This document shows, piece after piece, positions 10,774 to 50,708 of a DNA stretch of 64,000 nucleotides (its first letter is position 1; every line of letters begins with the position of its first letter). Location of the stretch: contig NZ_CP017781.1 of NCBI RefSeq assembly GCF_001856665.1, forward strand, positions 1,893,501-1,957,500, given 5' to 3'. The stretch is from Rhodobacter xanthinilyticus (GTDB lineage: Bacteria > Pseudomonadota > Alphaproteobacteria > Rhodobacterales > Rhodobacteraceae). Both the position numbers and the translations under genes were made by a program. The notes below the pieces were generated by a model. That model was not told the origin of the DNA. It saw nothing but the letters and a program-made list of their open reading frames with translations, and made no database searches.

Positions 10774-10826
10774 GATGCAAAAATATCCCGGGGGGCGGCG
10801 CAGCCGCGGGGGCAGCGCCCCCTCCG
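10774..10826. repeat. Degenerate copy of the intergenic palindromic element (copy A)
   Basis: Between two convergent genes. GATGCAAAAATATCCCGGGG matches the A/T-C/G core of the family seen at 24199, 26745, 32932, 45795 and 50640, but lacks the CATCTTG half. It is followed by a GC-rich arm, GGGGGCAGCGCCCCC, like the outer arms of the larger copies. Confidence 0.6.
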
Positions 10827-10829
10827 CCC

Positions 10830-11885
10830 TCACCCGCGCGGCAAGATCACCGAAAACGTGCTGCCCTTGCCCTTCTCGCTCTCGATCTTCAGCCGCCCAC
10901 GGTGCCGCGCCACGATATGCTTGACGATCGCAAGCCCGAGCCCCGTGCCCCCCTGCTCGCGCGAGCGATGCGTGTCGACCCGGTAGAACCGCTCCGTCAG
11001 CCGCGGCAGATGCAGCGCCTCGATCCCCTCGCCGCGGTCGATCACCGCGACTTTGAGCGCCGGCCCCCGGCTCACCGGCTCATGCGCCAGCGCCTCGACA
11101 TGAACCGTCACCTCGCCCCCCGAGCCGCCATATTTCACCGCGTTTTCAATGAGGTTCGAGAAAACCTGCGTGAGCTGGTCGGGGTCGCCCACCACCGGCA
11201 AAGCCCCCGTCTCGCCCGAGCGCAACAGCCGCACCTGCGCCGCCTCCGCCACCGGCTGCAGGGTCTGCATCGCCCCGCGCAACACCGCTGAAATATCGAC
11301 CGTCGCGCGCGGGCGCTGCCGCTCCTCCGCCTCGACGCGGCTGAGCGAGAGAAGATCGCCCACGAGCCGGTTCATCCGCCCCGCCTCGCGCGCCATGATC
11401 GACAAGAACCGCTCGCGCGCGACCGGATCGTCCTTCGCAGCCCCGCGCAGCGTCTCGACAAAGCCGATCAGCGCGGTCAGCGGCGTGCGCAGCTCATGGC
11501 TGACATTGGCGACAAAATCGCGCCGCATCGCCTCGGCCTCCTCGGTCGCGGTGATATCCTCGATCGACAGCATCGCGCCTGCCTCGGCCAAACCGCTCTC
11601 CGGCATCGGCGCGAGCGGCGCCACGGTGACCTGCGCGAGCATCTCCTGCGCGGGCGTGCCAAGCCGGATCCGCACCTGCTCGGCCGCGCCGCCGCGCAGC
11701 ACCGCCTCGAGCGCCGCGCCAAGCGCGGGCTGGCGCAGCACCGTCACGAACGGCCGCCCGACGATCCCCTGCCCGAGCAGCGCCTCCGCCCGGCAGTTCA
11801 CCGCCACCACCCGCTCCTGCGCGTTTACCACGATAACCGGCAACGGTATCGCTTCCAGCAGCGGCATTGTTAACCAGACCGACAT
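10830..11885 (-). CDS. PhoR-like sensor histidine kinase without membrane segments
   Basis: A 351-residue two-component kinase. A PAS-like N-terminal domain (about 10-110) is followed by a HisKA dimerisation helix with phospho-acceptor His130 in NVSHELRTPL. The HATPase domain carries N-box NLIENAVKY, G1 DRGEGI and G2 GGTGLGLAIVKHI. It resembles the cytoplasmic half of PhoR. The usual N-terminal transmembrane hairpin is absent, and no phoB, phoU or pst gene is adjacent. The ATG at 11885 follows GGGGGAAATT; a TTG nine codons upstream (11912) is the alternative. It is convergent with the alpha-glucosidase. Phosphate sensing is an inference from similarity only. Confidence 0.85.
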   Translation of the reverse strand: MSVWLTMPLLEAIPLPVIVVNAQERVVAVNCRAEALLGQGIVGRPFVTVLRQPALGAALEAVLRGGAAEQVRIRLGTPAQEMLAQVTVAPLAPMPESGLAEAGAMLSIEDITATEEAEAMRRDFVANVSHELRTPLTALIGFVETLRGAAKDDPVARERFLSIMAREAGRMNRLVGDLLSLSRVEAEERQRPRATVDISAVLRGAMQTLQPVAEAAQVRLLRSGETGALPVVGDPDQLTQVFSNLIENAVKYGGSGGEVTVHVEALAHEPVSRGPALKVAVIDRGEGIEALHLPRLTERFYRVDTHRSREQGGTGLGLAIVKHIVARHRGRLKIESEKGKGSTFSVILPRG

Positions 11886-12054
11886 AATTTCCCCCGGATT
11901 TTCAATGCTCAACCTTGACCAAATCCTTGACCGAGTAAACCATGGACCGACCGATCTTGAGAGAGCGTAAACGGGCAGTTAAGGAATTAAGTGTAGCTTA
12001 TTAATCAGAATCAGCTTCTGGTTGTGTCGCACGGGCGACAAATGGGATGGATGG

Positions 12055-12453
12055 ATGACGGTTCCACCAGTGTTCTTTCCAAAGCGCCCCGCGGGCCTGC
12101 CAGGCCTGCGTGACGATCTTGGCGGGCGGCGTATTCTCGTCGTCGAACCCTCGCAAACGCTGCCGCTTGCGCTGCGCGGCGTGGCCGGGGCCTCGGTCAC
12201 CATCGCGCGCCTCGCGATGATCGATGCGGCACTCCTCGCCCGCGCCACGCCCGATGTGGTGCTCGCGCCCCTCCTGAGCCCCGAACATGACATCCTCGAT
12301 CTCGCCCGGCTGCTGCACAAGCTCGGCTATAGTGGCGCGCTGCGCGCCTATTGCCAGCCGGTGCCGAACGCGCGGCTGATCCGCGCCGAGGTGCAACAGA
12401 TCTGGCCCGAGGTGGATTTCGACATCCTCGAGGTGCATCCGCGCCCCGATTGA
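12055..12453 (+). CDS. Uncharacterised receiver-like protein
   Basis: A 132-residue soluble protein of unknown function. After a basic N-terminus it contains RRILVVEPSQTLPLAL, then alternating strand/helix segments ending with a DILEVHP strand. This looks like a CheY-type receiver fold, but the phosphorylatable Asp position reads VVLAPLLSP with no aspartate. It may therefore be a pseudo-receiver. The start is uncertain: ATG at 12055 is preceded by GGGATGGATGG, and a TTG at 12022 is in the same frame. It is divergent from the histidine kinase at 11885 and nearly abuts the convergent gene at 12457. Confidence 0.6.
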   Translation: MTVPPVFFPKRPAGLPGLRDDLGGRRILVVEPSQTLPLALRGVAGASVTIARLAMIDAALLARATPDVVLAPLLSPEHDILDLARLLHKLGYSGALRAYCQPVPNARLIRAEVQQIWPEVDFDILEVHPRPD

Positions 12454-12456
12454 GCG

Positions 12457-12630
12457 TTACGGCAGGAACATCCGCCGAAACACCCAGCCCCCCAGCCCCG
12501 CCAAAAGCGCCCCGGGCAGCACATAGCCCACCGCGAAGACATAAGCCGAAGCCATCAGCGGCACCGCGCACACCGCGATCCGCACCCAGAGCGGCCGAAA
12601 CATCGGCTCTTGCGGGTCGAAAAGCCGCAT
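12457..12630 (-). CDS. Small membrane protein, 57 aa
   Basis: Begins MRLFDPQEPMFRPLWVR, followed by two closely spaced hydrophobic segments (about 18-35 and 37-50) and a basic tail, so it is likely a two-helix inner-membrane hairpin with a cytoplasmic N-terminus. The function is unknown. The ATG at 12630 lies 10 bases after the gamma-carbonic-anhydrase stop, so it is probably the last gene of the yicC-gmk-gamma-CA operon. Its stop is 3 bases from that of the convergent gene at 12453. Confidence 0.65.
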   Translation of the reverse strand: MRLFDPQEPMFRPLWVRIAVCAVPLMASAYVFAVGYVLPGALLAGLGGWVFRRMFLP

Positions 12631-12640
12631 CCCCCCGCCC

Positions 12641-13158
<518 letters not shown>

Positions 13159-13162
<4 letters not shown>

Positions 13163-13800
13163 CGCGCTTCAAACTCCTTGTTCAGCCCGCGCACGAATTC
13201 GGTCAGCCAGGGCTGGCGCTCGGCCCGCGCCCGCTCGGCGCGCAAGATCACCTTCAGCTCCTCGGCCGCCTGATCGGCATCGTGGTTCACCACGACATAA
13301 TCATACTCCGCCCAATGGCTGATTTCATGCATGCTCTTCGCCATCCGCCCCGCGATCACCGCGTCGCTATCCTGCGCGCGCCCGCGCAACCGGCTCTCGA
13401 GCTCGGCGATCGAGGGCGGCAGGATGAAGATCGAGATCACATCCTTGCCAAGGCTCGAGCGGCGGATCTGCTGCCCGCCCTGCCAATCGACATCAAAGAG
13501 CGTGTCCTGCCCGGCCTTCATCGCCGCCTCGACCGGCGCTTTCGGCGTGCCGTAGAAATTGCCGAAAACCTCGGCATGTTCGAGCATCTCGCCCTCGGCG
13601 ACCATCTGTTCGAAGTCGTGCTTCGAGCGGAAATAATACTCCACCCCGTCGGTCTCGCCCGGGCGCGGCGCGCGCGTCGTGGCCGAGACCGAGAAGCGCA
13701 GGTTCGCGTCCCAGGCCATCAGGCGCTTGGCCAGCGTCGATTTGCCCGCCCCCGAGGGCGAGGACAGGATGATCAGAAGGCCGCGGCGGGTCGGGGTCAT
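13159..13800 (-). CDS. gmk: Guanylate kinase
   Basis: Phosphorylates GMP to GDP with ATP. The 213-residue length is usual. The P-loop [10 protein letters not shown] is at 13-22 (Lys20). The GMP-binding segment contains [13 protein letters not shown] and GVEYYF, and the lid region contains [10 protein letters not shown]. It lies 3 bases after the yicC stop and overlaps the downstream gamma-CA gene by 4 bases. The yicC-gmk pairing is common in alphaproteobacteria. Confidence 0.97.
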
Positions 13801-13803
13801 GGC

Positions 13804-14754
13804 TCACTCCACATTCTGGATCTGCTCGCGCATCTGGTCGATCACCTGCTTGAGGTCAAGCCCGATCGCGGTCAGCTCGCTCGAGCCCGATTTCGAGCAC
13901 AAGGTATTCGCCTCGCGCACGAATTCCTGGGTCAGGAAATCGAACCGCCGGCCGATCGGCGCGGCCTCGGCCAAAAGCGCGCGCGCCGCCGCCACATGGG
14001 CGCGCAGCCGGTCGACCTCCTCGGTGACATCGGCCTTGACGGCAAGGAGCGCGAGCTCCTGCGCGACGCGGTCGGGGTCGGCGCCGGGCGCGCCCTCCAT
14101 CACCCGGGCAAGGTTGGCGCGCATCTGCGCCGCCCAATCGTCCTTCCGCGCGGTGGCAATTGTGGCCGCCGACTCGGTTAATGCCTCAATTCGGCCCAAT
14201 TGTGCCGCAATCACCGCCCCGATCTGGGCCCCTTCGGCGCGCCGCATTGCCACAAATTCGCCCAAAACCCGGTCGAGATGTGTTAACAAAACCGTGCGCA
14301 GCGGGCCCGGGTCCTCGGTCTGGACCGGCCCCTGTTCGATCACGCCGCGCAACGAAATCACCTCCGCGGCCGAGGTCGGCGCGAGCACCATCCCGCGCTC
14401 GGCGGCGCGCGCCTCGACCTCGGCAAGCGCGGCGAGCGCCGCCGCCAGACCCGGCCCGCTCAGCCGCATCCCCTCGCCCGCGTCAACCCGCCCAAGCCTC
14501 AGATTCAGCTGGATATTTCCCCGCGCCGCCCGGGCCGCAACCATGCCCCGCGCAGCCGCCTCCAGCCCCTCGATCTCGGGCATCCGCAGCCGCAGATCGA
14601 GCCCTTTGCCGTTCACCGAGCGGATCTCCCAGGCCCAGTCATGGCCCAGATCATGGCCGCTCGCGGCGGCAAATCCGGTCATCGAAACCGGCCCGGCGAA
14701 GGGGGGCTGGGAGGGGGGGTGCGGCGCGCGTTGCGCAGGATCGGCTTTAACCAT
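13804..14754 (-). CDS. YicC family endoribonuclease
   Basis: YicC/YloC proteins are hexameric endoribonucleases; E. coli YicC has been linked to sRNA turnover. The family N-terminal signature SMTGFAAA and core RSVNGKGLDLRLR are present, and the C-terminal part reads RRFDFLTQEFVREANTLCSKS, the most conserved stretch of the family. The ATG at 14754 gives 316 residues with an unusual proline-rich 24-residue leader. The ATG at 14682 starts exactly at MTGF and would give a family-like 292 residues. Neither has a strong ribosome site. It is the first gene of the operon with gmk. Confidence 0.9.
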   Translation of the reverse strand: MVKADPAQRAPHPPSQPPFAGPVSMTGFAAASGHDLGHDWAWEIRSVNGKGLDLRLRMPEIEGLEAAARGMVAARAARGNIQLNLRLGRVDAGEGMRLSGPGLAAALAALAEVEARAAERGMVLAPTSAAEVISLRGVIEQGPVQTEDPGPLRTVLLTHLDRVLGEFVAMRRAEGAQIGAVIAAQLGRIEALTESAATIATARKDDWAAQMRANLARVMEGAPGADPDRVAQELALLAVKADVTEEVDRLRAHVAAARALLAEAAPIGRRFDFLTQEFVREANTLCSKSGSSELTAIGLDLKQVIDQMREQIQNVE

Positions 14755-14915
14755 TTAAGACTTTAGTTCCCACTAAGGCAGAAAAAAGGCGTATTAAGAG
14801 TTTCGTAAGCATTTCGCTCCCGTGGTCAAGAAGACCAGCACGGCAGAAGCCCTCGGAGCCCTCACAGTATAGCATCCCGCAAAGCGTGCGGGCGGACGAA
14901 TGAACGGGTGACAAG

Positions 14916-15659: not shown

Positions 15660-15665
15660 GCCCCG

Positions 15666-15706
15666 AAAAAGCAACGGCCCGGAGCATGAACTTCGGGCCG
15701 TAACTT
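15666..15706. terminator. Bidirectional intrinsic terminator
   Basis: Perfect 8-bp stem ACGGCCCG/CGGGCCGT (15674-15681 with 15694-15701) and a 12-base loop. An A-run on the left (15666-15670) and a T-run on the right (15705-15709) allow termination on both strands. It sits between the convergent PAS gene and DAHP synthase. Confidence 0.88.
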
Positions 15707-15723
15707 TTTGATTTATCGCGAAA

Positions 15724-18403: not shown

Positions 18404-18472
18404 AGGCGCGCCGGGGCCGCCTTCCCTTGCGTCGCGGCGCGAAAAATTTGGCCATGCGGTCGGAAATCGACA

Positions 18473-24159: not shown

Positions 24160-24184
24160 AAGGGGCCCCGCGGGGCCCCTTTTC
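24160..24184 (+). terminator. Intrinsic terminator of the ABC uptake operon
   Basis: AAGGGGCCCC/GGGGCCCCTT is a near-perfect palindrome followed by TTTTC, 18 bases after the permease stop codon. Confidence 0.85.
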
Positions 24185-24198: not shown

Positions 24199-24245
24199 TT
24201 TCATCTTGCCCAAAATATCCCGGGGTCCGGGGCAGAGCCCCGGCT
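24199..24245 (+). repeat. Single copy of the intergenic palindromic element (copy B)
   Basis: TTTCATCTTGCCCAAAATAT followed by CCCGGGG, then a small GC hairpin CCGGGGCAGAGCCCCGG. It is an unpaired (half) copy of the family, between the uptake operon terminator and guaA. Confidence 0.8.
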
Positions 24246-24313: not shown

Positions 24314-25873
24314 ATGACCCAGCATCAACGCCTCCTCATCATCGACTTCGGCTCCCAGGTCACGCAGCTCATCGCGCGTCGCCTGCGCGAATTGAACGTC
24401 TACTGCGAAATCCACCCCTATCAGAACGTCACCGACACGTTCCTGCGCGATTTCGCCCCCCAAGCGATCATCTTCTCGGGCGGCCCGGATTCGGTGACCC
24501 GTGAAGGCTCCCCCCGCCCGCCGCGCGCCGCCTATGAGCTCGGCGTGCCGGTCCTCGGCATCTGCTATGGCCAGCAGGTGATGATGCAAGACCTCGGCGG
24601 CCTCGTCGAAGCCGGCCAAAGCCACACCGCCGAATTCGGCCGCGCCTATGTGACGCCCACCGAGAAGAGCCTCTCGATCCTCGAGGGCTGGTTCACCGAG
24701 GGCCGCGAACAGGTCTGGATGTCGCACGGCGACCACGTCTCGCGCCTCGCCCCGGGCTTCGAGGTCTTCGGCACCTCGCCCGGCGCCCCCTTCGCGATCA
24801 CCGCCGATCTCAGCCGCAATTTCTACGCCGTGCAATTCCACCCCGAGGTGCACCACACCCCGAACGGCGCGAAACTCTACGAGAATTTCATCCGCCTCGC
24901 GGGCTTCACCGGCGATTGGACGATGGCGGGCTACCGCCAACAGGCGATCGAACAGATCCGCGCCCAGGTCGGCAAATCCCACGTCATCTGCGGCCTCTCG
25001 GGCGGCGTCGACAGCTCGGTCACCGCGATCCTGCTGCACGAGGCGATCGGCGATCAGCTCACCTGCGTCTTCGTCGACCACGGCCTGCTGCGGCTGGGCG
25101 AGGCCGAACAGGTCGTCGCCATGTTCCGCGACAATTACAACATCAAGCTGATCGCGGCCGATGAGAGCGATCTCTTCCTCGGCGCGCTCGAAGGCGTCTC
25201 CGACCCCGAGGTCAAGCGCAAGACGATCGGCCGGCTCTTCATCGACGTGTTTCAGAAATACGCCAATGAAATCGAGGATGCCGAATTCCTCGCCCAGGGC
25301 ACGCTCTACCCCGATGTCATTGAATCGGTGAGCTTCTCCGGCGGCCCCTCGGTCACGATCAAATCGCACCACAATGTCGGCGGCCTGCCCGAGAAAATGG
25401 GCCTCAAGCTCGTCGAACCGCTGCGCGAGCTCTTCAAGGACGAGGTCCGCGCGCTTGGCCGCGAACTCGGCCTGCCCGAGAGCTTCATCGGCCGCCACCC
25501 CTTCCCGGGGCCGGGCCTCGCGATCCGCTGCCCGGGCGAGATCACCCGCGAAAAGCTCGAGATCCTGCGCAAGGCGGACGCCGTCTATATCGACCAGATC
25601 CGAAAACACGGGCTCTATGACGAAATCTGGCAAGCCTTCGTCGCGATCCTGCCGGTGAAGACCGTGGGCGTGATGGGCGACGGGCGGACCTATGATTACG
25701 CCTGCGCGCTGCGCGCGGTGACCTCGGTCGACGGCATGACCGCGGATTACTACCCCTTCACGCATGAGTTCCTCGGCGAGACCGCCACCCGGATCATCAA
25801 TGAGGTGAAAGGCATCAACCGCGTCACCTATGACATCACCTCGAAGCCCCCGGGCACGATCGAGTGGGAATGA
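24314..25873 (+). CDS. guaA: GMP synthase (glutamine-hydrolysing)
   Basis: Aminates XMP to GMP using glutamine and ATP. The protein has 519 residues. Class I glutamine amidotransferase domain (1-195): nucleophile Cys84 in GICYGQQ, and catalytic His/Glu in FHPEVHHT. The ATP-pyrophosphatase PP-loop GLSGGVDSS is near residue 227. The C-terminal dimerisation domain ends with [15 protein letters not shown], the family's standard terminus. The ATG at 24314 ([15 protein letters not shown]) matches homologues; the upstream in-frame codons run through the repeat element. A terminator follows the stop. Confidence 0.97.
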
Positions 25874-26744: not shown

Positions 26745-26903
26745 GGAGGGGGCGCTGCCCCCGCGGCTTCGCCGCCCCCCGGGATATTTAGGGCAAGATG
26801 AAATGGGTAAGGAGCGCCTCCCAACCCTTTCATCTTGCTTGAAATATCCTCGGGGGTGAAGGCCGGGCGGAGCCCGGACGAGGGGGCGGAAAGCCCCCTG
26901 CGC
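26745..26903. repeat. Paired inverted intergenic palindromic element (copy C)
   Basis: Left arm (26777-26803) reads CCCCGGGATATTTAGGGCAA then GATGAAA; the right arm (26828-26855) is its inverted copy with few mismatches. The 24-base loop between them contains its own small palindrome, GGAGCGCCTCC. Outer GC arms GGGGGCGCTGCCCCC and GGGGGCGGAAAGCCCCC flank it. It fills the junction between the convergent ABM-GNAT gene and aroB. Confidence 0.85.
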
Positions 26904-26906: not shown

Positions 26907-28019
26907 TCAGACCCGGCGCGCCGCCAGGGCCTCCTCGAGGAGCGTCTTGAGCACATCGCGCGGCACATCGGCCGTCACGAAAGCCTCGCCGATGCCGCGC
27001 GCGAGGATGAAGCGCATCTTGCCGTCGAGCACTTTCTTGTCCTGCGCCATCAGCGCGATCAGCCCCTCGGCGTCGGGCAATTCCCCTTCGATATCAGAGA
27101 GATCGACCTTCATCTTCATGTCGCGCAGATGGGCGCGCACGCGCGAGGGCGCCTCTTGCGAGCACAGCCCCAGCCGCTGGCTGAGCTCGAAGGCCAAGGC
27201 GCAGCCGATCGCCACCCCCTCGCCATGCAGGAGCCGGTCGGAATAGCCCGTCGCCGATTCGAGCGCATGGCAGAAGGTATGGCCGAGGTTCAAAAGCGCG
27301 CGGTCGCCCTCCTCGGTCTCGTCGCGCGCCACGATCTCGGCCTTCATCTCGACCGAGCGGCGCACCGCCGCGAGCCGCGCCGCGCGGTCGCCCGCGGCCA
27401 GTTTCGGGCCCATCTCCTCAAGCCAGTCGAAGAATTTCGCATCCCCCAGAAGCCCGTATTTCACCACCTCGCCATAGCCCGCGAGGAAATCGCGCGCGGT
27501 CAGCGTGCCCAGCACATCGATATCGGCGAGCACGAGGCTCGGCTGGTGAAACGCGCCGATCAGGTTCTTGCCGGCCGCGACATTGATCCCGGTCTTGCCG
27601 CCGACCGAGCTGTCGACCTGCGCCAGAAGCGAGGTCGGGACCTGCACAAACCGCACGCCGCGGCGCAGGACGGCCGCCGCAAAGCCCACCAGATCGCCGA
27701 TCACCCCGCCGCCGAAGGCCACCACGATATCCTTGCGCTCGACCTTCTCGGCGAGCAGCCATTCGCAGACCCGCTCGAACTGCGCCCAGCATTTCGTGGC
27801 CTCGCCCGCCGGGAGCGTGAGCGACACCATCTCGACATCGCCAAGCCCCGCCCGCAGCGCCTCCAGATGCAGCGCGCCGACGTTCTCGTCGGTCACCACC
27901 GCCACCCGCTTGCGGCGCAACAGCGGCGCGATCTCGGCGCCCGCCCGCGCGATCAGCCCCTCGCCGATCCGCACCTCATAGGCCCGTTCGCCGAGCTCCA
28001 CCCGCACCGTTTCGCGCAT
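26907..28019 (-). CDS. aroB: 3-dehydroquinate synthase
   Basis: Converts DAHP to 3-dehydroquinate, the second shikimate step, using NAD and a divalent metal. The 370-residue length is typical. NAD-binding GGGVIGDLVGFAAAVLRRG, substrate-site PTSLLAQVDSSVGGKTGIN, and metal ligands in the GHTFCHALE and HGEGVAIG segments are present. The start ATG at 28019 follows GGAGGGTTGAG and lies one base after the aroK stop, so aroK-aroB form an operon, a common arrangement. The first enzyme of the same pathway is at 15724 in this window. Confidence 0.96.
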   Translation of the reverse strand: MRETVRVELGERAYEVRIGEGLIARAGAEIAPLLRRKRVAVVTDENVGALHLEALRAGLGDVEMVSLTLPAGEATKCWAQFERVCEWLLAEKVERKDIVVAFGGGVIGDLVGFAAAVLRRGVRFVQVPTSLLAQVDSSVGGKTGINVAAGKNLIGAFHQPSLVLADIDVLGTLTARDFLAGYGEVVKYGLLGDAKFFDWLEEMGPKLAAGDRAARLAAVRRSVEMKAEIVARDETEEGDRALLNLGHTFCHALESATGYSDRLLHGEGVAIGCALAFELSQRLGLCSQEAPSRVRAHLRDMKMKVDLSDIEGELPDAEGLIALMAQDKKVLDGKMRFILARGIGEAFVTADVPRDVLKTLLEEALAARRV

Positions 28020-32913: not shown

Positions 32914-32931
32914 CCCGCCGCGCAGGGGGCG

Positions 32932-33057
32932 CTGCCCCCTCTGCCTTCGGCATTCACCCCCGGGATATTTTCGGCAAGATGAAGGGATTGATTTCATCTT
33001 GCCCGAAATATCCCGGGGGGTGAGGGCGCAGCCCGAGGGGGGCGGCGCCCCCCTGCC
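32932..33057. repeat. Paired inverted intergenic palindromic element (copy D, best copy)
   Basis: Arms 32957-32983 and 32993-33019 are inverted copies matching at 25 of 27 positions, separated by only 9 bases, so a very stable hairpin is expected. The right half-core is TTCATCTTGCCCGAAATATC. Outer arms are GGGGGCGCTGCCCCC on the left and GGGGGGCGGCGCCCCCC on the right. It occupies the junction of the convergent CNNM gene and mfd. Confidence 0.9.
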
Positions 33058-33063: not shown

Positions 33064-36000
33064 TCAGCTTTTCGCAGCCTTCTTCGCCTCGATGACCTTC
33101 TCGGCCAGATCCTTGGCGATCGCGAAAGCGCCCTTGATCTTCTCGGCATCCGAGGACCAATCGCGCTGCACCACCACCTTGTTGCCGGCGATCTTGGCCT
33201 GGCCGCGCTGGGCTTGCAGGAATTCGACGAGCCCCGCCGGGTTGGGGAACTTGTCGGCGTGGAACTGCACCGTGGCGCCTTTCGGCCCGGCATCCATCCG
33301 CGCGATATGGGCGCGTTTGCACATCGCCTTGATCCGCACGACGAGGAGCAGCGTGTTGACCTCTTTGGGCAGCTCCCCGAAGCGGTCGATGAGTTCGGCG
33401 GCGAAGCCCTCCAGCTCGACCTTGGTGGTCAGCCCCGAGAGCCGCCGGTAAAGCCCCAGCCGCACATCGAGATCGGGCACATAGGCCTCGGGGATCATCA
33501 CCGGCACGCCAAGGTTGATCTGCGGCGACCATTCGCCATCCTCGGCCATCTCGGTCAGCTCGCCCGATTTCAGCTTGGCGATCGTCTCCTCGAGCATCGC
33601 CTGATAGAGCTCGTAGCCCACTTCCTTGATATGGCCCGATTGTTCCTCGCCTAGAAGATTGCCCGCGCCGCGCAGATCGAGGTCCTGGCTGGCCAGATTG
33701 AACCCCGCGCCGAGGCTGTCGAGCGAGCCCAGAAGCCGCAGCCGCTTGGTCGCCTGCGGGGTGAGCGGCATCCGCGGTTTCGTGGTCAGATAGCAATAGG
33801 CGCGCAACTTCGAGCGCCCGACCCGGCCGCGGATCTGGTAGAGCTGCGACAGGCCGAACATATCGGCGCGGTGCACGATCATCGTATTCGCGGTCGGGAT
33901 ATCGAGGCCGCTTTCCACGATCGTGGTGGCCAAAAGCACATCGGCCTTGCCGTCGTAAAACGCGTTCATCCGCTCATCGAGCTCGCCCGCCGCCATCTGG
34001 CCATGGGCGACCATATAGCTCACCTCGGGCACATGGGTTTTCAGGAACTCCTCGACCTCGGCGAGATCGGTGATCCGCGGCACCACATAGAAGCTCTGCC
34101 CGCCGCGGAAGCGTTCGCGCAAGAGCGCCTCGCGGATCGTGACGGTATCGAACTCGCTCACATAGGTGCGGATCGCGAGCCGGTCGACCGGCGGCGTGCC
34201 GATGATCGAGAGATCCCGCACACCGGTCAGCGACAGTTGCAGCGTCCGCGGGATCGGCGTCGCGGTGAGCGTCAGCACATGGATCTCGGAGCGCATCTCT
34301 TTCAGCCGCTCCTTGTGGTTGACGCCGAAATGCTGCTCCTCGTCGATGATCAGCAGGCCGAGGTTGCGGAATTTCACCGCCTTGGCGAGCACCGCATGGG
34401 TGCCGATCACGATATCGACCGAGCCCTCGGCGAGGCCCGCGCGGGTCTCGGCGGCGGCTTTGGCCGAGACAAAGCGCGACAGCGGCCGGACATTGACCGC
34501 GGTGCCGCGGAAGCGCTCGGCGAAGGTCTTGTAATGCTGGCGCGCGAGCAGCGTGGTCGGCGCGATCACCGCCACCTGCACCCCCGAGACCGCCGCGATG
34601 AAAGCCGCGCGCATCGCGACCTCGGTCTTGCCAAAGCCCACATCGCCCACCACGAGCCGGTCCATCGGCCGCCCCGTGCCCAGATCGCTCACCACATCGT
34701 CGATCGCGCTGAGCTGGTCCTCGGTCTCGCTATAGGGGAAGCGCGCGGCGAAGGCCTCCCATTCGTGATGCGGCGCCTCGAGGATCGGGGCTGCGCGCAA
34801 CAGCCGCTCGGCCGCGATCCGCATGAGTTTATCGGCGATCTGGCGGATCCGCTCCTTGAGCCGCGCCTTCTTCGCCTGCCAGGCGCCGCCGCCGAGCTTG
34901 TCAAGCAGCCCCTCCTCATGGCCATAGCGGCTCAGAAGCTCGATATTCACCACCGGCAGATAGAGCCGATCGCCGCCCGCATATTCCAAAAGCACACAAT
35001 CGAGCGGCGCGCCGAGCGCCGAGACCGTCTCGAGCCCCTTGTAGCGCCCGACCCCGTGATCGACATGGACGACGAGATCGCCGGGCGTGAGGCTCTGCGC
35101 CTCGGTCAGGAAATTCTCCGCCTTGCGCTTTTTCTTCGGGCGGCTGACGAGCCGGTCGCCGAGCACATCCTGCTCGGAGATGACGGTGAGCCCGCCCGCC
35201 GCGCGCTCGACCTCGAAGCCCGCGTCGAGCGGCCAGACCGCGAGGTTCACGCCGGGCCCGATCTCGCGCGCGTCGCGAATGGCGCGCGCGCCGCTCAGCC
35301 CCTCATCCTCCAAAAGCCCCTTCAGACGCTCGCGCGCGCCCTCCGACCAGCTCGCGACGACCACCGGGCCAAGCGCGAGCTGTTTGAGAAGATGATCCTT
35401 CAACGCCCCGAAAAGGCTCACATTTTCAAGCTGCCGCTCGGGCGCGAAATTGCGCCCGATGCGCCCGCCCGCATCGACGACCCCGGGCCCGGGCGGGGCG
35501 CGCAGGATCTGGAGCTGCAACACCCGCCGGGGCGCGAGCGCCGCCCCCCAGGCCGCCTCGTCGAGATAGAGAAGCTCGGGCGGCGCGGGTTTGTAGACGC
35601 TGTCGAGCCGGTCGCGCCGGCTCATCGCCTCGCGGCGCGTATCATATTGATCGGCGATGCCTTCCCAGCGCGAGATCCGCTGCGGGCCGGTCTGGTCATC
35701 CAAGAGCACCGCCGCCTCGGGGAGATAGTCGAAAATCGTCTCGAGCCGGTCATGGAAGAAGCCCAGCCAATGCTCCATCCCCGCATGTTTGCGCCCCGCC
35801 GAGACCGCCTCGTAAAGCGGATCCTCCGCGCCGCCCGCGCCGAATTCGACCCGGTAATTCTGGCGAAACCGGCTGATCGAGGCCTCGTCGAGGATCACCT
35901 CGCTGACCGGGGCGAGCTCGATCGCGGTGAGCTTTTCGGTGGTGCGCTGGCTCACCGGGTCGAAGCGGCGCGCCCCGTCGAGCACATCGCCGAAGAGATC

Positions 36001-36513
36001 AAGCCGCACCGGGCCGGATTCGCCGGGCGGGAAAATGTCGATGATGCCGCCGCGCACCGCGTAATCGCCGGGCTCGGAGACGGTCGAGGCCGGCGAGAAG
36101 CCCATCCGCGCGAGAAACTGGCGCAGCCGCGCCTCGTCGATCCGCCCGCCGACGCGCGCGGTGAAGCTCGCCCCCGCGACGGTGGCGCGCGCGGGCACGC
36201 GCTGCATCGCGGCCGAGAGCGTGGTCAAGAGCACAAACGGCCCCGGCACGCCCGCGCTGAGCGCGGCCAAGGTCGCCATCCGGGTCGCCGAAATATCGGG
36301 GTTGGGCGAGACCCGGTCATAGGGCAGACAATCCCAGCCCGGAAAATTCAGCACCACCGCCTCGGGCGCGAAAAACGCCAAGGCCGCCCGCATCGCCTCG
36401 AGCCGGCGATCATCGCGCGCGACATGGATCACCGGCTGGCCCTTGGCCAATTCCTGCGCGATCAGCCGCGCATCAAACCCCTCGGGCGCGCCGGAATAGA
36501 GAAAATGCGCCAT
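33064..36513 (-). CDS. mfd: Transcription-repair coupling factor Mfd
   Basis: DNA translocase that removes RNA polymerase stalled at lesions and recruits UvrA. The 1149-residue length is typical. In order: a UvrB-like damage-recognition homology module (residues 1-350), the RNA-polymerase-interacting CarD-like domain (about 460-560; LVVHVDHGVGRYKGLE), a RecG-like helicase with Walker A VGDVGFGKTEVAMRAAF and box DEEQHFGV, motif TATPIPRTLQLSLTG and GRVGRS, and a C-terminal TRCF domain. The ATG at 36513 has GAGG five bases upstream; GTG 36516 is the alternative. The upstream membrane-protein gene ends 7 bases away. Confidence 0.96.
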   Translation of the reverse strand: MAHFLYSGAPEGFDARLIAQELAKGQPVIHVARDDRRLEAMRAALAFFAPEAVVLNFPGWDCLPYDRVSPNPDISATRMATLAALSAGVPGPFVLLTTLSAAMQRVPARATVAGASFTARVGGRIDEARLRQFLARMGFSPASTVSEPGDYAVRGGIIDIFPPGESGPVRLDLFGDVLDGARRFDPVSQRTTEKLTAIELAPVSEVILDEASISRFRQNYRVEFGAGGAEDPLYEAVSAGRKHAGMEHWLGFFHDRLETIFDYLPEAAVLLDDQTGPQRISRWEGIADQYDTRREAMSRRDRLDSVYKPAPPELLYLDEAAWGAALAPRRVLQLQILRAPPGPGVVDAGGRIGRNFAPERQLENVSLFGALKDHLLKQLALGPVVVASWSEGARERLKGLLEDEGLSGARAIRDAREIGPGVNLAVWPLDAGFEVERAAGGLTVISEQDVLGDRLVSRPKKKRKAENFLTEAQSLTPGDLVVHVDHGVGRYKGLETVSALGAPLDCVLLEYAGGDRLYLPVVNIELLSRYGHEEGLLDKLGGGAWQAKKARLKERIRQIADKLMRIAAERLLRAAPILEAPHHEWEAFAARFPYSETEDQLSAIDDVVSDLGTGRPMDRLVVGDVGFGKTEVAMRAAFIAAVSGVQVAVIAPTTLLARQHYKTFAERFRGTAVNVRPLSRFVSAKAAAETRAGLAEGSVDIVIGTHAVLAKAVKFRNLGLLIIDEEQHFGVNHKERLKEMRSEIHVLTLTATPIPRTLQLSLTGVRDLSIIGTPPVDRLAIRTYVSEFDTVTIREALLRERFRGGQSFYVVPRITDLAEVEEFLKTHVPEVSYMVAHGQMAAGELDERMNAFYDGKADVLLATTIVESGLDIPTANTMIVHRADMFGLSQLYQIRGRVGRSKLRAYCYLTTKPRMPLTPQATKRLRLLGSLDSLGAGFNLASQDLDLRGAGNLLGEEQSGHIKEVGYELYQAMLEETIAKLKSGELTEMAEDGEWSPQINLGVPVMIPEAYVPDLDVRLGLYRRLSGLTTKVELEGFAAELIDRFGELPKEVNTLLLVVRIKAMCKRAHIARMDAGPKGATVQFHADKFPNPAGLVEFLQAQRGQAKIAGNKVVVQRDWSSDAEKIKGAFAIAKDLAEKVIEAKKAAKS

Positions 36514-45762: not shown

Positions 45763-45794
45763 GGCCGAGCCCCCCGGCCGGTCGCCTCCCCCAC

Positions 45795-45920
45795 CCGGCG
45801 GAAGCCTCCGGCGGGGATATTTGGAGCAAGATGAAAGAGTAAGAACGTTCTCATTCATCTTGCCGCAAATATCCCGGGGGGTGAGGGCGCCAGCCCGAGG
45901 GGGGCGGCGCCCCCCTGCGC
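45795..45920. repeat. Paired inverted intergenic palindromic element (copy E)
   Basis: Left half-core 45812-45835 (CGGGGATATTTGGAGCAAGA then TGAA) and right half-core 45853-45880 are inverted copies around a loop containing the palindrome GAACGTTC. The right flank (45881-45920) is nearly identical to the right flank of copy D at 33020-33057. It occupies the junction of the convergent acylase gene and hflX. Confidence 0.88.
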
Positions 45921-45926
45921 GGCGGA

Positions 45927-47210
45927 TCAAAGTGCGCGGAAGCGCGCGCGCTGGCTTGCGGCCCAGTTCACCTCGAGCTGCCAGCCCTCTTCGGTCTCGA
46001 CCTCGGAGCGCACGACATTTTGCTCATGCAGCCAGGCCCGCGCGCGCCCCTTCTCGAAGGGCAGGATCAGCGCCTCGTCGAAGCGCTCCTCGCCCAGCCG
46101 CGTCTCGATCGCGGCGTAGAGCGCCTCGATCCCCTCGCCGGTGAGCGCGGAGACTGCCTGCACCTCCTCGCGCCGCGCGTCTTGCGCCAGAAGCGCCGCG
46201 CGCAGGCTCGGCGAGAGCGCGTCGATCTTGTTCCAGACCTCGAGCAGCGCCACATCCTCGGCCACGCCGAGGCTCTCGAGGATCTCGCCGACATCGGCGG
46301 CCTGTTCCTCGGTCTCGGGGTGGGCCACGTCGCGCACATGCAAGATCAGATCGGCCTCGAGCACCTCTTCGAGCGTGGCGCGGAAGGCCGCGACGAGTTC
46401 ATGGGGCAGCTCGGAGATGAAGCCCACCGTATCCGAGAGGATCACTTTGCGCCCGTTGGGCAGCGTGATGCCGCGCATCGTCGGGTCGAGGGTGGCAAAG
46501 AGCATGTCCTTCGCCATCACATCGGCGCCAGTCATCCGGTTGAACAGCGTCGATTTCCCCGCGTTCGTATAGCCCACCAGCGCGACGACCGGGAACGGCA
46601 CCTTGCGACGCGCGGCGCGGTGCAATTCGCGGGTTTTCACGACCTTGGCGAGTTGGCGGCGGATCTTGACCACCTGATCGTCGATCGCGCGGCGGTCGGC
46701 CTCGATCTGGGTCTCGCCGGGGCCGCCGACGAAGCCAAGCCCGCCCCTTTGCCGCTCGAGGTGGGTCCAGGCGCGCACCAGCCGCGTGCGCTGATAGGAG
46801 AGCGCGGCGAGCTCGACCTGCAGCACCCCCTCGCGGGTGCGGGCGCGATCGGCGAAGATCTCGAGAATGAGCCCGGTGCGGTCAAGGAGCTTGACGCCCC
46901 ATTCCTTCTCGAGGTTGCGCTGCTGCACCGGGCTGACCGGCCCGTCGACGAGCACGAGATCGACCTCGGCCTCGGCGAGGCGCTCTTTCAGCTCGGCCAG
47001 CTTGCCGGTGCCGAAGAGATGGCCGGCATGGGGTTTGGGCAGGCGCACGACCTCGGCCCCCACCACCTCGAGCATCGGCAGCGCAACCGCGAGCGACACC
47101 GCCTCGGCGAGGCGGTGTTCGGGCATGCGGCGCGCGTCCTGCGCCTTCAGATCGGGATGCAGCACATAGGCCCGGGTCGGGCGCTCACGCTGAAAGACGG
47201 GTTCGGTCAC
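45927..47210 (-). CDS. hflX: GTPase HflX
   Basis: Ribosome-associated GTPase that splits or rescues ribosomes under stress. The protein has 427 residues. The N-terminal HflX domain contains HLFGTGKLAELKERL and GLGFVGGPGETQIEADRR. G1 is VGYTNAGKSTLFNRMTG, G3 is DTVGFISELPHELVAAF and G4 is NKID. GTG at 47210 starts it; no ATG nearby fits. The start lies 11 bases after the hfq stop, so hfq-hflX are co-transcribed, as in many proteobacteria. Confidence 0.95.
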   Translation of the reverse strand: MTEPVFQRERPTRAYVLHPDLKAQDARRMPEHRLAEAVSLAVALPMLEVVGAEVVRLPKPHAGHLFGTGKLAELKERLAEAEVDLVLVDGPVSPVQQRNLEKEWGVKLLDRTGLILEIFADRARTREGVLQVELAALSYQRTRLVRAWTHLERQRGGLGFVGGPGETQIEADRRAIDDQVVKIRRQLAKVVKTRELHRAARRKVPFPVVALVGYTNAGKSTLFNRMTGADVMAKDMLFATLDPTMRGITLPNGRKVILSDTVGFISELPHELVAAFRATLEEVLEADLILHVRDVAHPETEEQAADVGEILESLGVAEDVALLEVWNKIDALSPSLRAALLAQDARREEVQAVSALTGEGIEALYAAIETRLGEERFDEALILPFEKGRARAWLHEQNVVRSEVETEEGWQLEVNWAASQRARFRAL

Positions 47211-47221
47211 CGCGGCGCCGC

Positions 47222-47455
47222 TCAGTCCTCGCCCTCATAGAGCGAGATCGGCGCGCCCGGCATGATCGTCGAGATCGCATGTTTGTAGACGAGCTGGCTC
47301 TGGCCATCGCGGCGCAGCAACACGCAGAAATTGTCGAACCAGGTGATCACCCCTTGCAGCTTCACCCCGTTGATCAGGAAAATCGTGACCGGCACCTTGG
47401 TCTTGCGGACGTGGTTAAGGAACGCGTCCTGCAAATTCTGTTTATCGGCTGCCAT
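47222..47455 (-). CDS. hfq: RNA chaperone Hfq
   Basis: Sm-like hexameric protein for sRNA-mRNA pairing. The protein has 77 residues, the length known for Rhodobacter Hfq. The Sm1 motif reads [20 protein letters not shown]; the Sm2 motif is YKHAIST. The N-terminal [18 protein letters not shown] is typical. The acidic C-terminal tail is very short (SLYEGED), so the long disordered tail of E. coli Hfq is missing. The ATG at 47455 gives the canonical start. R. capsulatus Hfq is known to affect nitrogen-fixation gene expression. It is followed by hflX. Confidence 0.97.
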
Positions 47456-47564
47456 TTTTATTATGCCTTTATGTTCTTGAAGCTCCGCGGAGCTCATGTC
47501 GCGCGTCTGGGCGGGCGTTTTGCCCGCTCAGAATCAGTATGCGGAAGAAACCGCCAGATTCCAG

Positions 47565-47589
47565 CCCCAAAAACAGCCCGTTAGCGGGC
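47565..47589 (-). terminator. Intrinsic terminator of the trk genes
   Basis: 5-bp stem GCCCG/CGGGC (47576-47580 with 47585-47589), loop TTAG, followed on the minus strand by TGTTTTTGG. It lies 18 bases after the trkH stop and would separate the trk genes from hfq. Confidence 0.65.
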
Positions 47590-47606
47590 AAAAGCGGCGC
47601 CTTGTG

Positions 47607-49133
47607 TCAGGCGCGCCATAGTTCGGGGTTGAAGAGCGCGATGATCGCCAGCGTTTCGAGCCGCCCGACCACCATCGCCATCGCCAGGATCGCGCGCGTG
47701 GCCTCGCTCAGCTCGGCCCATTGCAAGGGCGTATCGGCGGCGACCGAGGCGAGCGGCCCCGTGTTCGAGAGCGCCGCGATCGAGAGAATCGTCGCCGGCT
47801 CGAAGGGCAGCCCGACGAAAGAGACCGCCATCATCACCACCGCGATCGAGAGCGCGAAGAGCATGAAGAAGATCCAGGCGATATAGGCGCCCTCGCGGCG
47901 CAGCCGCCGCGCCATGTCGCCGCCGCCCGCGATCGAGGTCGGGTGGATCAGCTTGTCGAGCTCGCGCTCGCCGTGGCGCAAGAGCGCATAGACCCGCAAG
48001 AGCCGCACGCCCCCCGCCGTGGTGGCGATGCCGCCCCCGGTGATCGCGAGCCCGGCCAGCACGAGCCCGGGCGTGCCAAGCCCCGACCAGTTGCGCGCAT
48101 CATCCCAGGTCGAGCCCTCGAAGCCGGTCGTCGTCAGGAAGGAGAGCGAGGTGAACGCGCCCCCCCAGAGCGATTTCACGATCGGCCCGAGCGCGGTGGG
48201 CGTCTGCACCTCGAGCGCCGCGATCCAGTGGCGCAAGAACAGCACCACCGGCACCAGCGCCACCAGCGCAGCGGCCAGCCGCAGCTCCGGGTCGTCGATG
48301 AGCCGCGCCGAGGCGCGCAGCTCGCCCCCGCCCGGCCAGAGCCTGCGCGAGAGCGCCGGGATCAGGAACAGGAAGATCAGCATCTCGCCCACGATCCCCG
48401 AAGGCGCGCCGCCGACCCCGCCCACCGGCGAGATCCCCGAGGTCGAGAGCGTCGACATCGCATGAATGAGCGCGATCAGCGGCGGATCGCCCGCGACAAG
48501 CAGCGCCAGCCACAAAAGCGCCGTCAGCCCGAGATAGGCCGGCAGCAGCTTGAGCGTATAATGCACGATCCGCTCGCCGGGCTCCGCGCTGTCCTCGCCC
48601 GCCGCCAGAAGCGGCGCCGAGCTCGCCCCGCCCGAGACGAACATCTCGAAGCCGCCAAGCCGCAGGGGCGCGAGCACCGCAATCGCCATCACCAGCATGA
48701 AGAACCCGCCCAGCCACGCCACCTCGGCGCGCCACAGATGCAGCGTGGCGGGCAGCCGCTCGGGCGCGTAAAGGCTCGCGCCGGTGGTGGTCAGCGCGGA
48801 GACCATCTCCCACCAGCTGTTGAAGAACCCGGTATCGGGCACCGCCTCGTTGAACGGCACCGCGAGCATCACCGGCAAGAGCGTGAAGGTCGCGAGCATG
48901 GCGAGGAGCTGGCTGCGGCCCTGCGGCCCGCGCGGGTTGGCGCCGGTGGCGAGCGCGAGCAGCGCGGTCAGCACGCCAAACAGGATCAGCGAATAGAGAA
49001 ACGGCCGCGCCGCATCATAATCGCGCAGGAAGAACCCGTGCAGCGCCGGGAGGAGCATCGCCACCGCGCCGATCCCCATCTCGATGAGGATCAGCGGCAG
49101 CTCCTGGATCTGGCGCCCGATGCGCTGCAACAT
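47607..49133 (-). CDS. trkH: Potassium transporter membrane subunit TrkH
   Basis: Membrane subunit of the Trk K+ uptake system. The 508-residue protein contains the four pore repeats with selectivity-loop sequences, including SALTTTGASLY, STLSTSGISPVGG, LSFLTTTGFEGS and AALSNTGPLAS. The glycine after each Ser/Thr is the filter residue. About ten membrane helices are apparent. The ATG at 49133 lies 9 bases downstream of the trkA stop, so the pair is co-transcribed and TrkA supplies the cytoplasmic NAD/ATP-binding ring. Confidence 0.94.
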   Translation of the reverse strand: MLQRIGRQIQELPLILIEMGIGAVAMLLPALHGFFLRDYDAARPFLYSLILFGVLTALLALATGANPRGPQGRSQLLAMLATFTLLPVMLAVPFNEAVPDTGFFNSWWEMVSALTTTGASLYAPERLPATLHLWRAEVAWLGGFFMLVMAIAVLAPLRLGGFEMFVSGGASSAPLLAAGEDSAEPGERIVHYTLKLLPAYLGLTALLWLALLVAGDPPLIALIHAMSTLSTSGISPVGGVGGAPSGIVGEMLIFLFLIPALSRRLWPGGGELRASARLIDDPELRLAAALVALVPVVLFLRHWIAALEVQTPTALGPIVKSLWGGAFTSLSFLTTTGFEGSTWDDARNWSGLGTPGLVLAGLAITGGGIATTAGGVRLLRVYALLRHGERELDKLIHPTSIAGGGDMARRLRREGAYIAWIFFMLFALSIAVVMMAVSFVGLPFEPATILSIAALSNTGPLASVAADTPLQWAELSEATRAILAMAMVVGRLETLAIIALFNPELWRA

Positions 49134-49142
49134 GCCCCCGCC

Positions 49143-50519
49143 TCAGAAGAAGTCGATCGAGACTTGCAAGAGCCGCTCGACGACCGGCACATCGGCGGCG
49201 AGCGCGAAGATCGCGACGACATCGCCCTCCTCGATCTTGGTATCGCCCGCGGGCTTGATCACCTTCTCGCCCTTCATCACCGCGCCGAGGAGCACGCCCT
49301 CGGGGAAATCAATGTCGCGCACCATCTTGCCCGCCATCGGCGAGGTGCCCATCACCTGCGCCTCGATCACCTCCGCCTCGGCGTCGCCAATCGAATAGAT
49401 CGCGCGCACGCGGCCGAGCCGGATATGGCGCAGGATCGAGGAGACGGTGGTGGCGCGCGGGTTGATATAGGCGTCGATGTCGAGGGGCGCCATCAAGGGC
49501 ACCAGCGTCGGGTCGTTGACGAGCGAGATCGCCATCTTGCAGCCCGCCTGCTTGGCGCGCACCGCGGCGAGGATATTGGTCTTGTCGTCATCGGTGACGA
49601 CCAGCACCGCATCGGCGCGCTCGATATTGGCCTCCTCGAGAAGCTCCGCACTCATCCCATCGCCGTTGAGCACGATGGTGCGCTCGAGCGCATCGGCGGC
49701 GCGTTCGGCAATCGCGCGGTCCTTCTCGATGATCTTGGCCCGCACCCGGTCCGAGCGCGCCTCGAGCGCCCGCGCGACCCCAAGGCCCACATTGCCGCCG
49801 CCGATGATCACGATCCGCTCCTGCTTCTTCGAGGCCTTGCCGAAGATCTCGAGCGTGCGCCCGACATCCTGGCTGTGCGAGAAGACATAGATCTGATCCT
49901 CGGCGAAGAGCTGATCGCCCGGCTCGGGCGCGAAGAGCCGCCCGTCGCGGCGCACGCCCACGACCAGCGCGCGGAGCGTCGAGAAGAGCTCGGTGAGCTG
50001 GCGCAGGGGGGTGTTGAGCACCGGGCAATCGTCATCGAGCACGATGCCGAGGAGCTGGATCTGGCCCTTGAGGAAACTCTCGGTGTCGAAGGTGGTGGGC
50101 GCGGCAAGGCGCTGCAACGCGGCCTCGGCGACCTCGCGCTCGGGCGAGATGATCACATCGATCGGCAGGTGATCGCGGCGGTAAAGGTCGGCATATTGCG
50201 GCGCGAGATAGGTCTGGGCGCGGATCCGGGCGATCTTGCGGGTGATGCCGAAGACCGATTGCGCGACCTGACAGGTCACCATGTTGACCTCGTCGGAATG
50301 GGTCGCGGCGATGATCAGATCGCAATCGCGCGCGCCGGCACGCTCGAGCACATCGGGATGCGAGGCAAACCCCACCACGCCCTGAACATCGAGCGTATCG
50401 GAGGCGCGGCGCACAAGCTCGGGGTTGCTGTCGACGATGGTCACATCGTTGCGCTCGCCCGCAAGATGGCGCGCGATCTGCCAACCGACCTGACCCGCGC
50501 CGCAGATGATCACCTTCAT
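49143..50519 (-). CDS. trkA: Trk potassium uptake regulatory subunit TrkA
   Basis: Cytoplasmic RCK-domain protein that gates TrkH. The 458-residue protein has two RCK_N/RCK_C repeats: MKVIICGAGQVGWQIARHLA starts the first, RIVIIGGGNVGLGVARALE the second (about 232). Both have the GXGXXG dinucleotide fold. The ATG at 50519 follows AAAGGACAGC. Its 3' end is 9 bases from the trkH start. A 220-base gap upstream to ntrX contains copy F of the intergenic element, so it may also have its own promoter. Confidence 0.95.
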   Translation of the reverse strand: MKVIICGAGQVGWQIARHLAGERNDVTIVDSNPELVRRASDTLDVQGVVGFASHPDVLERAGARDCDLIIAATHSDEVNMVTCQVAQSVFGITRKIARIRAQTYLAPQYADLYRRDHLPIDVIISPEREVAEAALQRLAAPTTFDTESFLKGQIQLLGIVLDDDCPVLNTPLRQLTELFSTLRALVVGVRRDGRLFAPEPGDQLFAEDQIYVFSHSQDVGRTLEIFGKASKKQERIVIIGGGNVGLGVARALEARSDRVRAKIIEKDRAIAERAADALERTIVLNGDGMSAELLEEANIERADAVLVVTDDDKTNILAAVRAKQAGCKMAISLVNDPTLVPLMAPLDIDAYINPRATTVSSILRHIRLGRVRAIYSIGDAEAEVIEAQVMGTSPMAGKMVRDIDFPEGVLLGAVMKGEKVIKPAGDTKIEEGDVVAIFALAADVPVVERLLQVSIDFF

Positions 50520-50639
50520 ATGCTGTCCTTTCGCGCCCTTCGCGGCCCGCGGGCCCAAGGGCTGTTCTATGCGTGCCCGCGCGGGCGGTCAATCGCGCGG
50601 CCCCGCGCCCCTGCCCGCCGGCGCCGCGGCCCCGGGCGG

Positions 50640-50708
50640 CGGATGCCTCCGGCGGGGATATTTGCGGCAAGATGAAACGCAACTTCCGCTTCTTCTTGGC
50701 CCAAATAC
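50640..50708. repeat. Degenerate paired intergenic palindromic element (copy F)
   Basis: Left half-core GGCGGGGATATTTGCGGCAA then GATGAAA (50651-50677) closely matches copies C-E. The right half, CTTCTTCTTGGCCCAAATAC (50689-50708), is a decayed inverted partner. The flank GGATGCCTCCGGCGGGG matches GGAAGCCTCCGGCGGGG of copy E. It lies in the ntrX-trkA gap of a tandem pair. Confidence 0.75.

What the first reader, a model, noticed from the sequence alone, without database searches (positions are those of the whole stretch)
10774..50708. Family of intergenic palindromic elements with complementary distribution to terminators
Copies of TTCATCTTGCCCGAAATATC (and its complement) with flanking C/G-runs occur at 10774, 24199, 26745, 32932, 45795 and 50640, never inside a coding region. 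Three are paired inverted copies at convergent gene junctions; one degenerate copy is at a fourth. The other four convergent junctions with room carry classical hairpin terminators, and the remaining two have overlapping or abutting stop codons. This either/or pattern suggests the element does the terminator's job, or insulates against convergent transcription and supercoiling.
Basis: partly seen in the sequence, partly recalled or inferred. Interest (0 to 1): 0.72.

Follow-up and report, generated by a model that had tools for sequence, protein, structure and literature searches.

The report
Mobile hairpin tags at gene ends
Short repeated DNA tags with a nearly unchanging sequence sit at the ends of genes in this bacterium, look inserted, and come in different sets of spellings in related species, which suggests that something in the cell reads them.

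Summary
The genome has 378 exact copies in three tail families (121, 146, 111; reversed controls 0). The unit is one arm: [G+C hairpin, clearest in families I/III]-GATATTT (II: GCGTATTT)-2-3 free bases-10-nt tail. In 850 kb: 167 copies, 67 pairs (60 tail-to-tail), 33 singles; 164 lie outside called genes. Junctions with elements: convergent 38/99, tandem 52/553, divergent 8/98. The 'either/or' with classical terminators is a tendency (convergent OR 0.24, P 0.014; tandem OR 0.23, P 0.008), not a rule: 10 of 37 convergent element junctions also have one. Against the congener G007, element junctions are longer by about one unit, so units look inserted. They resemble REPINs but lack a Y1 transposase, GTAG/CGTC tag and decayed singles. 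Fixed bases are almost invariant; free bases of paired arms avoid complementarity (families II, III); related species use other sets of tails. Best reading: insertion-spread 3'-end cassettes, read in a sequence-specific way, acting as transcript 3' ends in both directions. The transcript-ending step is inferred, not shown.

The parts
10768..10829 (-). single arm, family III (core 10768-10787 plus G+C hairpin); convergent junction
   Evidence: G007 has a 3-bp gap here
   Evidence: in G007 and G010 the two genes overlap by 4 bp here
24200..24245 (-). single arm, family I, antisense to both tandem genes; a G+C hairpin followed by TTTT (24160-24183) precedes it
26745..26802 (+). left arm of a pair: hairpin plus family I core 26783-26802; convergent junction
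26829..26900 (-). right arm of the pair: family I core 26829-26848 plus hairpin
32923..32983 (+). left arm: hairpins plus family I core 32964-32983; convergent junction (right gene matches the mfd model)
32993..33055 (-). right arm: family I core 32993-33012 plus hairpin
45795..45835 (+). left arm: GCCTCCGGCGGGG-type stretch plus family I core 45816-45835; convergent junction (right gene matches the HflX model)
   Evidence: G007 has a 0-bp gap here, G010 a family II pair
45854..45920 (-). right arm: family I core 45854-45873 plus hairpins
50640..50676 (+). left arm: GCCTCCGGCGGGG-type stretch plus family I core 50657-50676; tandem junction
50690..50710 (-). right arm of the same pair, family II core (mixed pair)

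Best explanation
A multi-copy family of small 3'-end cassettes. The unit is one arm of roughly 45-65 bp: a G+C-rich hairpin (families I and III, less clear in II), then GATATTT (family II: GCGTATTT), two to three free bases, and a nearly invariant 10-nt tail (I GCAAGATGAA, II CCAAGAAGAA, III CATC[G/A]TTGAA). Arms occur alone or, twice as often, as pairs, mostly tail-to-tail. They reach gene ends by insertion (inferred from gap lengths against a congener), and those that land just after stop codons, above all between convergent genes, are kept. Proposed action: an arm gives the transcript arriving from its hairpin side a 3' end (hairpin plus AUAUUU as a weak intrinsic terminator or pause, and a barrier to 3' exonucleases), and a pair does this for both directions. 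The tail is read by an unknown trans-acting factor, either the mobilising enzyme or a protein that acts at the site. Shown: anatomy, copy number, near-invariance, pairing rules, junction preference, gap differences, other tail sets in other species.
For: Copy number with zero reversed-pattern controls. In 850 kb 163 of 167 copies match every fixed position and 4 have one mismatch; beyond these only 1 non-coding and 2 coding sequences stand at 2-3 mismatches, while the two freest positions carry 0.12-0.75 bit and the third 0.64-1.22: this fits selection on the fixed bases, not recent clonal copying. 164 of 167 outside called genes. Junction preference. Pairs: 60 of 67 tail-to-tail; 54 of those 60 of one family, permutation mean 20.6, maximum 34. 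Complementarity at the two free positions of paired arms is avoided: 13 of 108 against 37.4 expected, minimum 18 in 20,000 permutations, carried by families II and III. Insertion: against G007, orthologous gaps differ by a median of 47 bp for singles (n=7), 144 bp for pairs (n=12), 0 where G000 has no element (n=124); five G007 junctions there have gaps of -4 to 3 bp. Negative association with canonical terminators in G000. Upstream stretches of I and III fold below the mean of their own shuffles in 57/70 and 37/45.
Against: No transcript data. There is no true U-tract (4 T in GATATTTN). Family II has no clear upstream hairpin (33/52 below shuffle mean, stem ending at the core in 21/52), and a simple purine-run hairpin was found in only 204 of 353 arms of all families. 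Singles at tandem junctions point both ways (11:7) and 6 of 11 sense singles abut the next start codon. 8 of 98 divergent junctions carry elements. The terminator association is absent in G010 and does not depend on arm orientation for singles. G007 mostly has neither at the same place, 14 of 19, though only G000's motifs were sought there. Gain and loss were not polarised; against G010 the gap differences are noisier (singles -233 to 100, n=5; pairs 13 to 175, n=7). In family I pairs identical free dinucleotides are as frequent as expected (2 of 21 against 2.25). At one orthologous junction of G016 and G011 the two arms have different tails. No mobilising enzyme was identified: Y1_Tnp gave 0 matches; other transposases were not tested.
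Confidence: 0.45

Rival explanations
1. A selfish miniature mobile element, REPIN-like, moved by an enzyme that is not a Y1 transposase. It has no cellular role; selection merely removes insertions in genes and promoters, leaving those at 3' ends.
For: Insertion-like gap differences, inverted pairs, copy numbers of the skeleton from 7 to 230 in 15 congeners, copies between closely spaced tandem genes near the next start codon, empty sites in G007.
Against: Singles are as intact as paired copies (32 of 33 against 131 of 134), unlike REP singlets, which the REPIN paper reports as less conserved (PMC3116915, passages). Few copies with 1-3 mismatches: 163 perfect against 7, where that paper's table gives 1053 against about 476 after chance (passage; Fisher P 2e-16, run with 8 instead of 7). 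No Y1_Tnp. 60 of 99 convergent and 91 of 98 divergent junctions have 60 bp or more, yet 37 against 8 of these hold elements.
Confidence: 0.27
2. DNA sites for a sequence-specific protein (roadblock, supercoiling or nucleoid function) at 3' ends, with pairs serving both directions.
For: Near-invariance of 17-18 bases, no preference for G-U over A-C on the sense strand at the third free position of tandem family I pairs (5 against 4, counted by eye), avoided complementarity between paired arms in families II and III, other tail sets in other species.
Against: Spacers between paired arms spread from 9 to 49 bp, so no rigid dimer; the upstream hairpins have no obvious role; no candidate protein was sought or found.
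Confidence: 0.15
3. Ordinary intrinsic terminators that share sequence through common descent.
For: Hairpins upstream of AUAUUU, 3'-end location, negative association with canonical terminators in G000.
Against: An intrinsic terminator needs no invariant 10-nt tail downstream of the release site (established knowledge), and tails differ between species at the same gene end; family II lacks a clear hairpin.
Confidence: 0.08
4. DNA uptake sequences with species dialects.
For: Many near-identical short motifs, inverted pairs, different versions in different species.
Against: Hardly any copies in coding DNA (3 of 167 inside called ORFs, all within 143 nt of a called start), whereas an uptake bias should act on coding DNA too (recalled for Neisseria; PMC3630211 seen in a search listing only).
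Confidence: 0.03

Closest known systems
REP / REPIN (doublets of repetitive extragenic palindromes)
   Same: Hundreds of short extragenic repeats, inverted doublets and singlets, several sequence families per genome, variants that differ between species.
   Different: No Y1_Tnp gene, no GTAG or CGTC tag, the conserved part is a core and tail rather than the palindrome, singlets not decayed, free bases inside an invariant core, convergent-junction preference.
BIMEs of enterobacteria (recalled)
   Same: Located at 3' ends, unlike arms in inverted orientation, candidate roles in transcription attenuation, mRNA stability and gyrase binding.
   Different: Arms of different construction; no sequence comparison was run.
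Intrinsic (Rho-independent) terminators
   Same: G+C hairpin then A/U-rich tract at gene ends; in G000 found less often together with a canonical one.
   Different: No U-tract proper; invariant tail; family II without clear hairpin; copies between closely spaced tandem genes.
DNA uptake sequences of Neisseriaceae (recalled; PMC3630211 in a listing only)
   Same: Short repeated motif, inverted pairs, dialects between species.
   Different: Nearly confined to non-coding DNA here.

Membership tests
REP/REPIN | High-copy extragenic repeats, mostly inverted doublets | tested here: met
   164 of 167 outside called genes; 67 doublets of 100 clusters, 60 of 67 tail-to-tail
REP/REPIN | Cognate RAYT (Y1_Tnp) in the genome | tested here: not met
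   PF01797: 0 matches in G000; the control rings in 5 of 14 genomes. [quoted passage not shown]
REP/REPIN | GTAG or CGTC tag at one end of the palindrome | tested here: not met
   Position frequencies of the three cores with 16 bases before and 14 after show neither
REP/REPIN | Singlets less conserved than doublets | tested here: not met
   No mismatch in 32/33 singlets and 131/134 doublet copies; feature from passages of PMC3116915
Intrinsic terminator | G+C-rich stem directly upstream | tested here: inconclusive
   45 nt upstream below own shuffle mean in 57/70 (I), 37/45 (III), 33/52 (II); stem ends within 3 nt of the core in 52/70, 28/45, 21/52
Intrinsic terminator | U-tract after the stem | tested here: not met
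   Consensus GATATTTNN, below the 5-of-8 T rule used for canonical ones
Intrinsic terminator | Transcript 3' ends at the site | not testable with these tools
   No RNA data available
DNA uptake sequence | Copies also in coding DNA | tested here: not met
   3 of 167 inside called ORFs, all within 143 nt of a called start
DNA uptake sequence | Uptake bias in transformation | not testable with these tools
   Needs an experiment
Known RNA family (Rfam 15) | Match above gathering score | tested here: not met
   0 matches in the window

The most novel reading that the evidence does not exclude
Gene 3' ends in Rhodobacteraceae carry an address: fixed anchors (GATATTT and, in most tails seen, GAA) around a spelling of about 8 nt that is nearly invariant within a family, with related species using different sets of spellings, read by an unknown, fast-evolving factor that both spreads the cassettes and ends or protects transcripts there; the free bases are kept mismatched between paired arms so that the palindrome does not become perfect.
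Probability: 0.2. Interest if true: 0.85.

Novelty: new variant of a known kind. Interest (0 to 1): 0.6.

Why it matters
REPINs are explained as RAYT-driven mobile DNA whose single copies decay. Here an abundant repeat family without that transposase shows almost no decay, and related species carry other spellings of it at gene ends. Finding the factor that reads it would show either a new miniature-element machine or a dedicated 3'-end system, and it matters in practice for terminator prediction and genetic tools in Rhodobacter-type bacteria.

Tried and rejected
Triplex/mirror-repeat idea for the C-run next to the core: first count 22 mirror against 1 direct with 44 ties, among 204 of 353 arms where a purine-run hairpin was found. 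The control showed no link between an A-T pair flanking the G-arm and a T beside the last C-run (14 of 56 against 38 of 125); the remaining internal-A cases are few and look partly related; dropped.

RNA-strand test by G-U against A-C at the third free position of tandem family I pairs: 5 against 4, no preference (by eye). Replication polarity: an apparent strand switch after 2.11 Mb looks like a listing artefact (54 + rows, then - rows cut); GC skew in samples was too noisy to place origin and terminus.

Literature: searches listed no paper that, by title or abstract start, describes these motifs. One search for the letters themselves gave 181 papers, 40 listed, none opened; their titles are unrelated. 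The library holds open-licence papers only, so this is no proof of absence. Seen as passages only: PMC3116915, PMC3733652, PMC8632094, PMC2267715; PMC6238624 and PMC3630211 in listings only.
Full report
What is there. The 20-mer is real and far from chance: 8 copies with at most 2 mismatches in the window, none in 100 shuffles. Read in the other direction it is GATATTTNNGGCAAGATGAA. The whole genome (3.78 Mb, G000) holds 121 copies of TTCATCTTGCNNNAAATATC, reversed control 0. Scans of the intergenic DNA of 850 kb around the window gave two further tail families on the same plan: GCGTATTTNNNCCAAGAAGAA (pattern GTATTTNNNCCAAGAAGAA: 146 in the genome) and GATATTTNNNCATC[G/A]TTGAA (111), reversed controls 0. 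In those 850 kb, of 121 GATATTT outside coding DNA 68 go on to AAGATGAA, 30 to TCGTTGAA and 13 to TCATTGAA. The window holds 8 copies of I, 2 of II and 1 of III at 7 places.

Anatomy. Families I and III are mostly preceded by a G+C hairpin ending in a C-run before GGGATATTT. In arms from other Rhodobacterales (119 loci, titles shown for 80; arms printed) the stem sequences vary while pairing seems to stay, by eye; no formal covariation count was run. A few rows from unrelated groups (L089, L109, L141, L142) lack the hairpin and look like chance matches. The 45 nt upstream fold at -23.3 (I), -23.5 (III) and -17.1 kcal/mol (II) on average against -20.3, -20.0 and -15.9 for mononucleotide shuffles; below the own shuffle mean in 57/70, 37/45 and 33/52. 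Fixed positions (17-18 per core): 163 of 167 copies have no mismatch and 4 have one. Copies were collected with at most one mismatch, so the wider search matters: outside the 167 there is 1 non-coding sequence with two mismatches and 2 coding ones with three; the many hits at 4-5 mismatches on the 167 themselves are cross-matches between families. Four length variants of the free stretch exist (II 1, III 3) and are not counted. For comparison, REP 16-mers of P. fluorescens SBW25 rise from 1053 with no to 1560 with up to three substitutions, 31 by chance (PMC3116915, table passage); Fisher P 2e-16 (with 8 imperfect copies where one search leaves 7). The comparison is rough because the motifs differ.

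Pairs and singles. The 167 copies form 100 clusters: 67 pairs, 33 singles; 60 pairs are tail-to-tail, 54 of them within one family against 20.6 expected. Spacers of these 60 are 9-49 bp, 22 of 60 at 9-11. About 3 of 33 singles have a decayed or length-variant partner nearby. The two free bases avoid Watson-Crick complementarity between paired arms of one family: 13 of 108 against 37.4, never reached in 20,000 permutations. By family, identical dinucleotides: II 0 of 18 against 6.8, III 0 of 15 against 2.35, I 2 of 21 against 2.25, so the effect rests on II and III. In family II one arm mostly has TT and the other GG. Selection against a perfect palindrome, or for an internal loop, would both explain this.

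Place. Junctions with an element: convergent 38 of 99, tandem 52 of 553, divergent 8 of 98 (own gene caller, 751 genes, so borders are approximate). With gaps of 60 bp or more: 37/60, 49/247, 8/91; elements lengthen gaps, so this conditioning is imperfect. Three of 167 copies fall inside called ORFs, within 143 nt of the called start: two are left outside by my first caller's start, the third (2330383) is inside by both callers, where third-position G+C is low. At tandem junctions pairs mostly begin close to the upstream stop codon. Canonical terminators (stem of 5 bp or more, 5 T in 8; cores masked) occur at 10 of 37 convergent junctions with an element and 14 of 23 without, and at 3 of 49 against 44 of 198 tandem ones; in G010 there is no such difference and few elements. 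Per gene end, both arms 9/52, sense arm only 3/12, antisense arm only 3/12, none 26/58 at convergent junctions; tandem 3/34, 1/11, 0/7, 41/239: lower with pairs, no orientation effect for singles. Detection is conservative: the hairpin with TTTT at 24.16 kb is missed.

Evolution. The exact family I motif is in 9 of 61 genomes (own included) and absent from 10 of 18 of the genus, yet occurs in other genera. At gene ends orthologous to those of the window other species carry the skeleton with other tails (read by eye): both arms CCAGAAAGAA (G008), CCAAGTCGAA (G004) or CACTGTTGAG (G013) beside the 33.0-kb gene, whose right neighbour seems to differ from G000's; in G016 and G011 beside the 26.9-kb gene the two arms differ (GCAATTGGAA in one). 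At the hflX junction (45.8 kb), of 18 species, by eye, G000 has a family I pair, seven a family II-like pair (some degenerate), three an A-run/hairpin/T-run terminator, one a single arm, two a weak hairpin and four nothing. The skeleton CCCCGGGATATTTN10GAA is in 15 of 15 congeners searched (of 17; G007 and G010 were not given), 7 to 230 copies, reversed control 0; rows were listed for three only: in G002 10 of 18 read CAAAGTCGAA and 6 GCAAGATGAA, in G012 and G014 most listed rows read CCAAGGTGAA with some GCAAGATGAA. So species differ in sets and shares of tails, and several tails coexist in one genome. A looser pattern occurs in 82 of 198 genomes of the family, 58 of them (my count of the rows) with five or more; four reversed-control hits. 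Gaps against G007 are longer by 47 bp (7 singles) and 144 bp (12 pairs), 0 at 124 other junctions. Of 17 conserved element junctions, G010 has an element at 5. Loss in G007 is not excluded.

What it does. Location, the negative association with terminators in G000 and the alternation with terminators at one orthologous junction fit a 3'-end function; orientation of singles, singles close to the next start codon and empty sites in G007 speak against a strong terminator. The invariant tail and the differing tail sets ask for a reader; none was found. I put 0.45 on insertion-spread 3'-end cassettes, 0.27 on a selfish element only, 0.15 on a DNA-binding site function.

Membership. It is not filed as REPIN: tag, transposase and singlet decay were tested and not met. 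It works somewhat like one. It is not an intrinsic terminator by definition (no U-tract), though it may act as one.

Noticed in passing
G000 C1:3035380-3462926 plus 1-205324, and contigs C2-C4: No copy of GATATTTNNGGCAAGATGAA (95 listed, all on C1) in an arc of about 0.63 Mb if C1 is circular; with 85 places (second copies of pairs left out) 0 of 20,000 simulations give such a gap. Of the listed family II rows one lies there (2621). Cause unknown.
   Followed up: partly
G007, orthologous to window 24.2 kb: G007, with no G000-type element at one mismatch in the 388 kb read, has one arm at this place with tail CCAAGAAGAA where G000 has GCAAGATGAA.
   Followed up: no
G000 C1:1630294-1630506: A canonical A-run/hairpin/T-run terminator lies in the spacer between the two arms; G010 has the same nesting with a different tail in one arm.
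   Followed up: no
window 24314-25873, 26907-28019, 33064-36513, 45927-47210: Neighbours of elements match the models for GMP synthase, 3-dehydroquinate synthase (aroB), transcription-repair coupling factor (mfd) and GTPase HflX. No functional theme seen.
   Followed up: no
family II pairs, G000: Paired arms mostly combine one TT arm with one GG arm at the free positions, an asymmetry not explained.
   Followed up: partly
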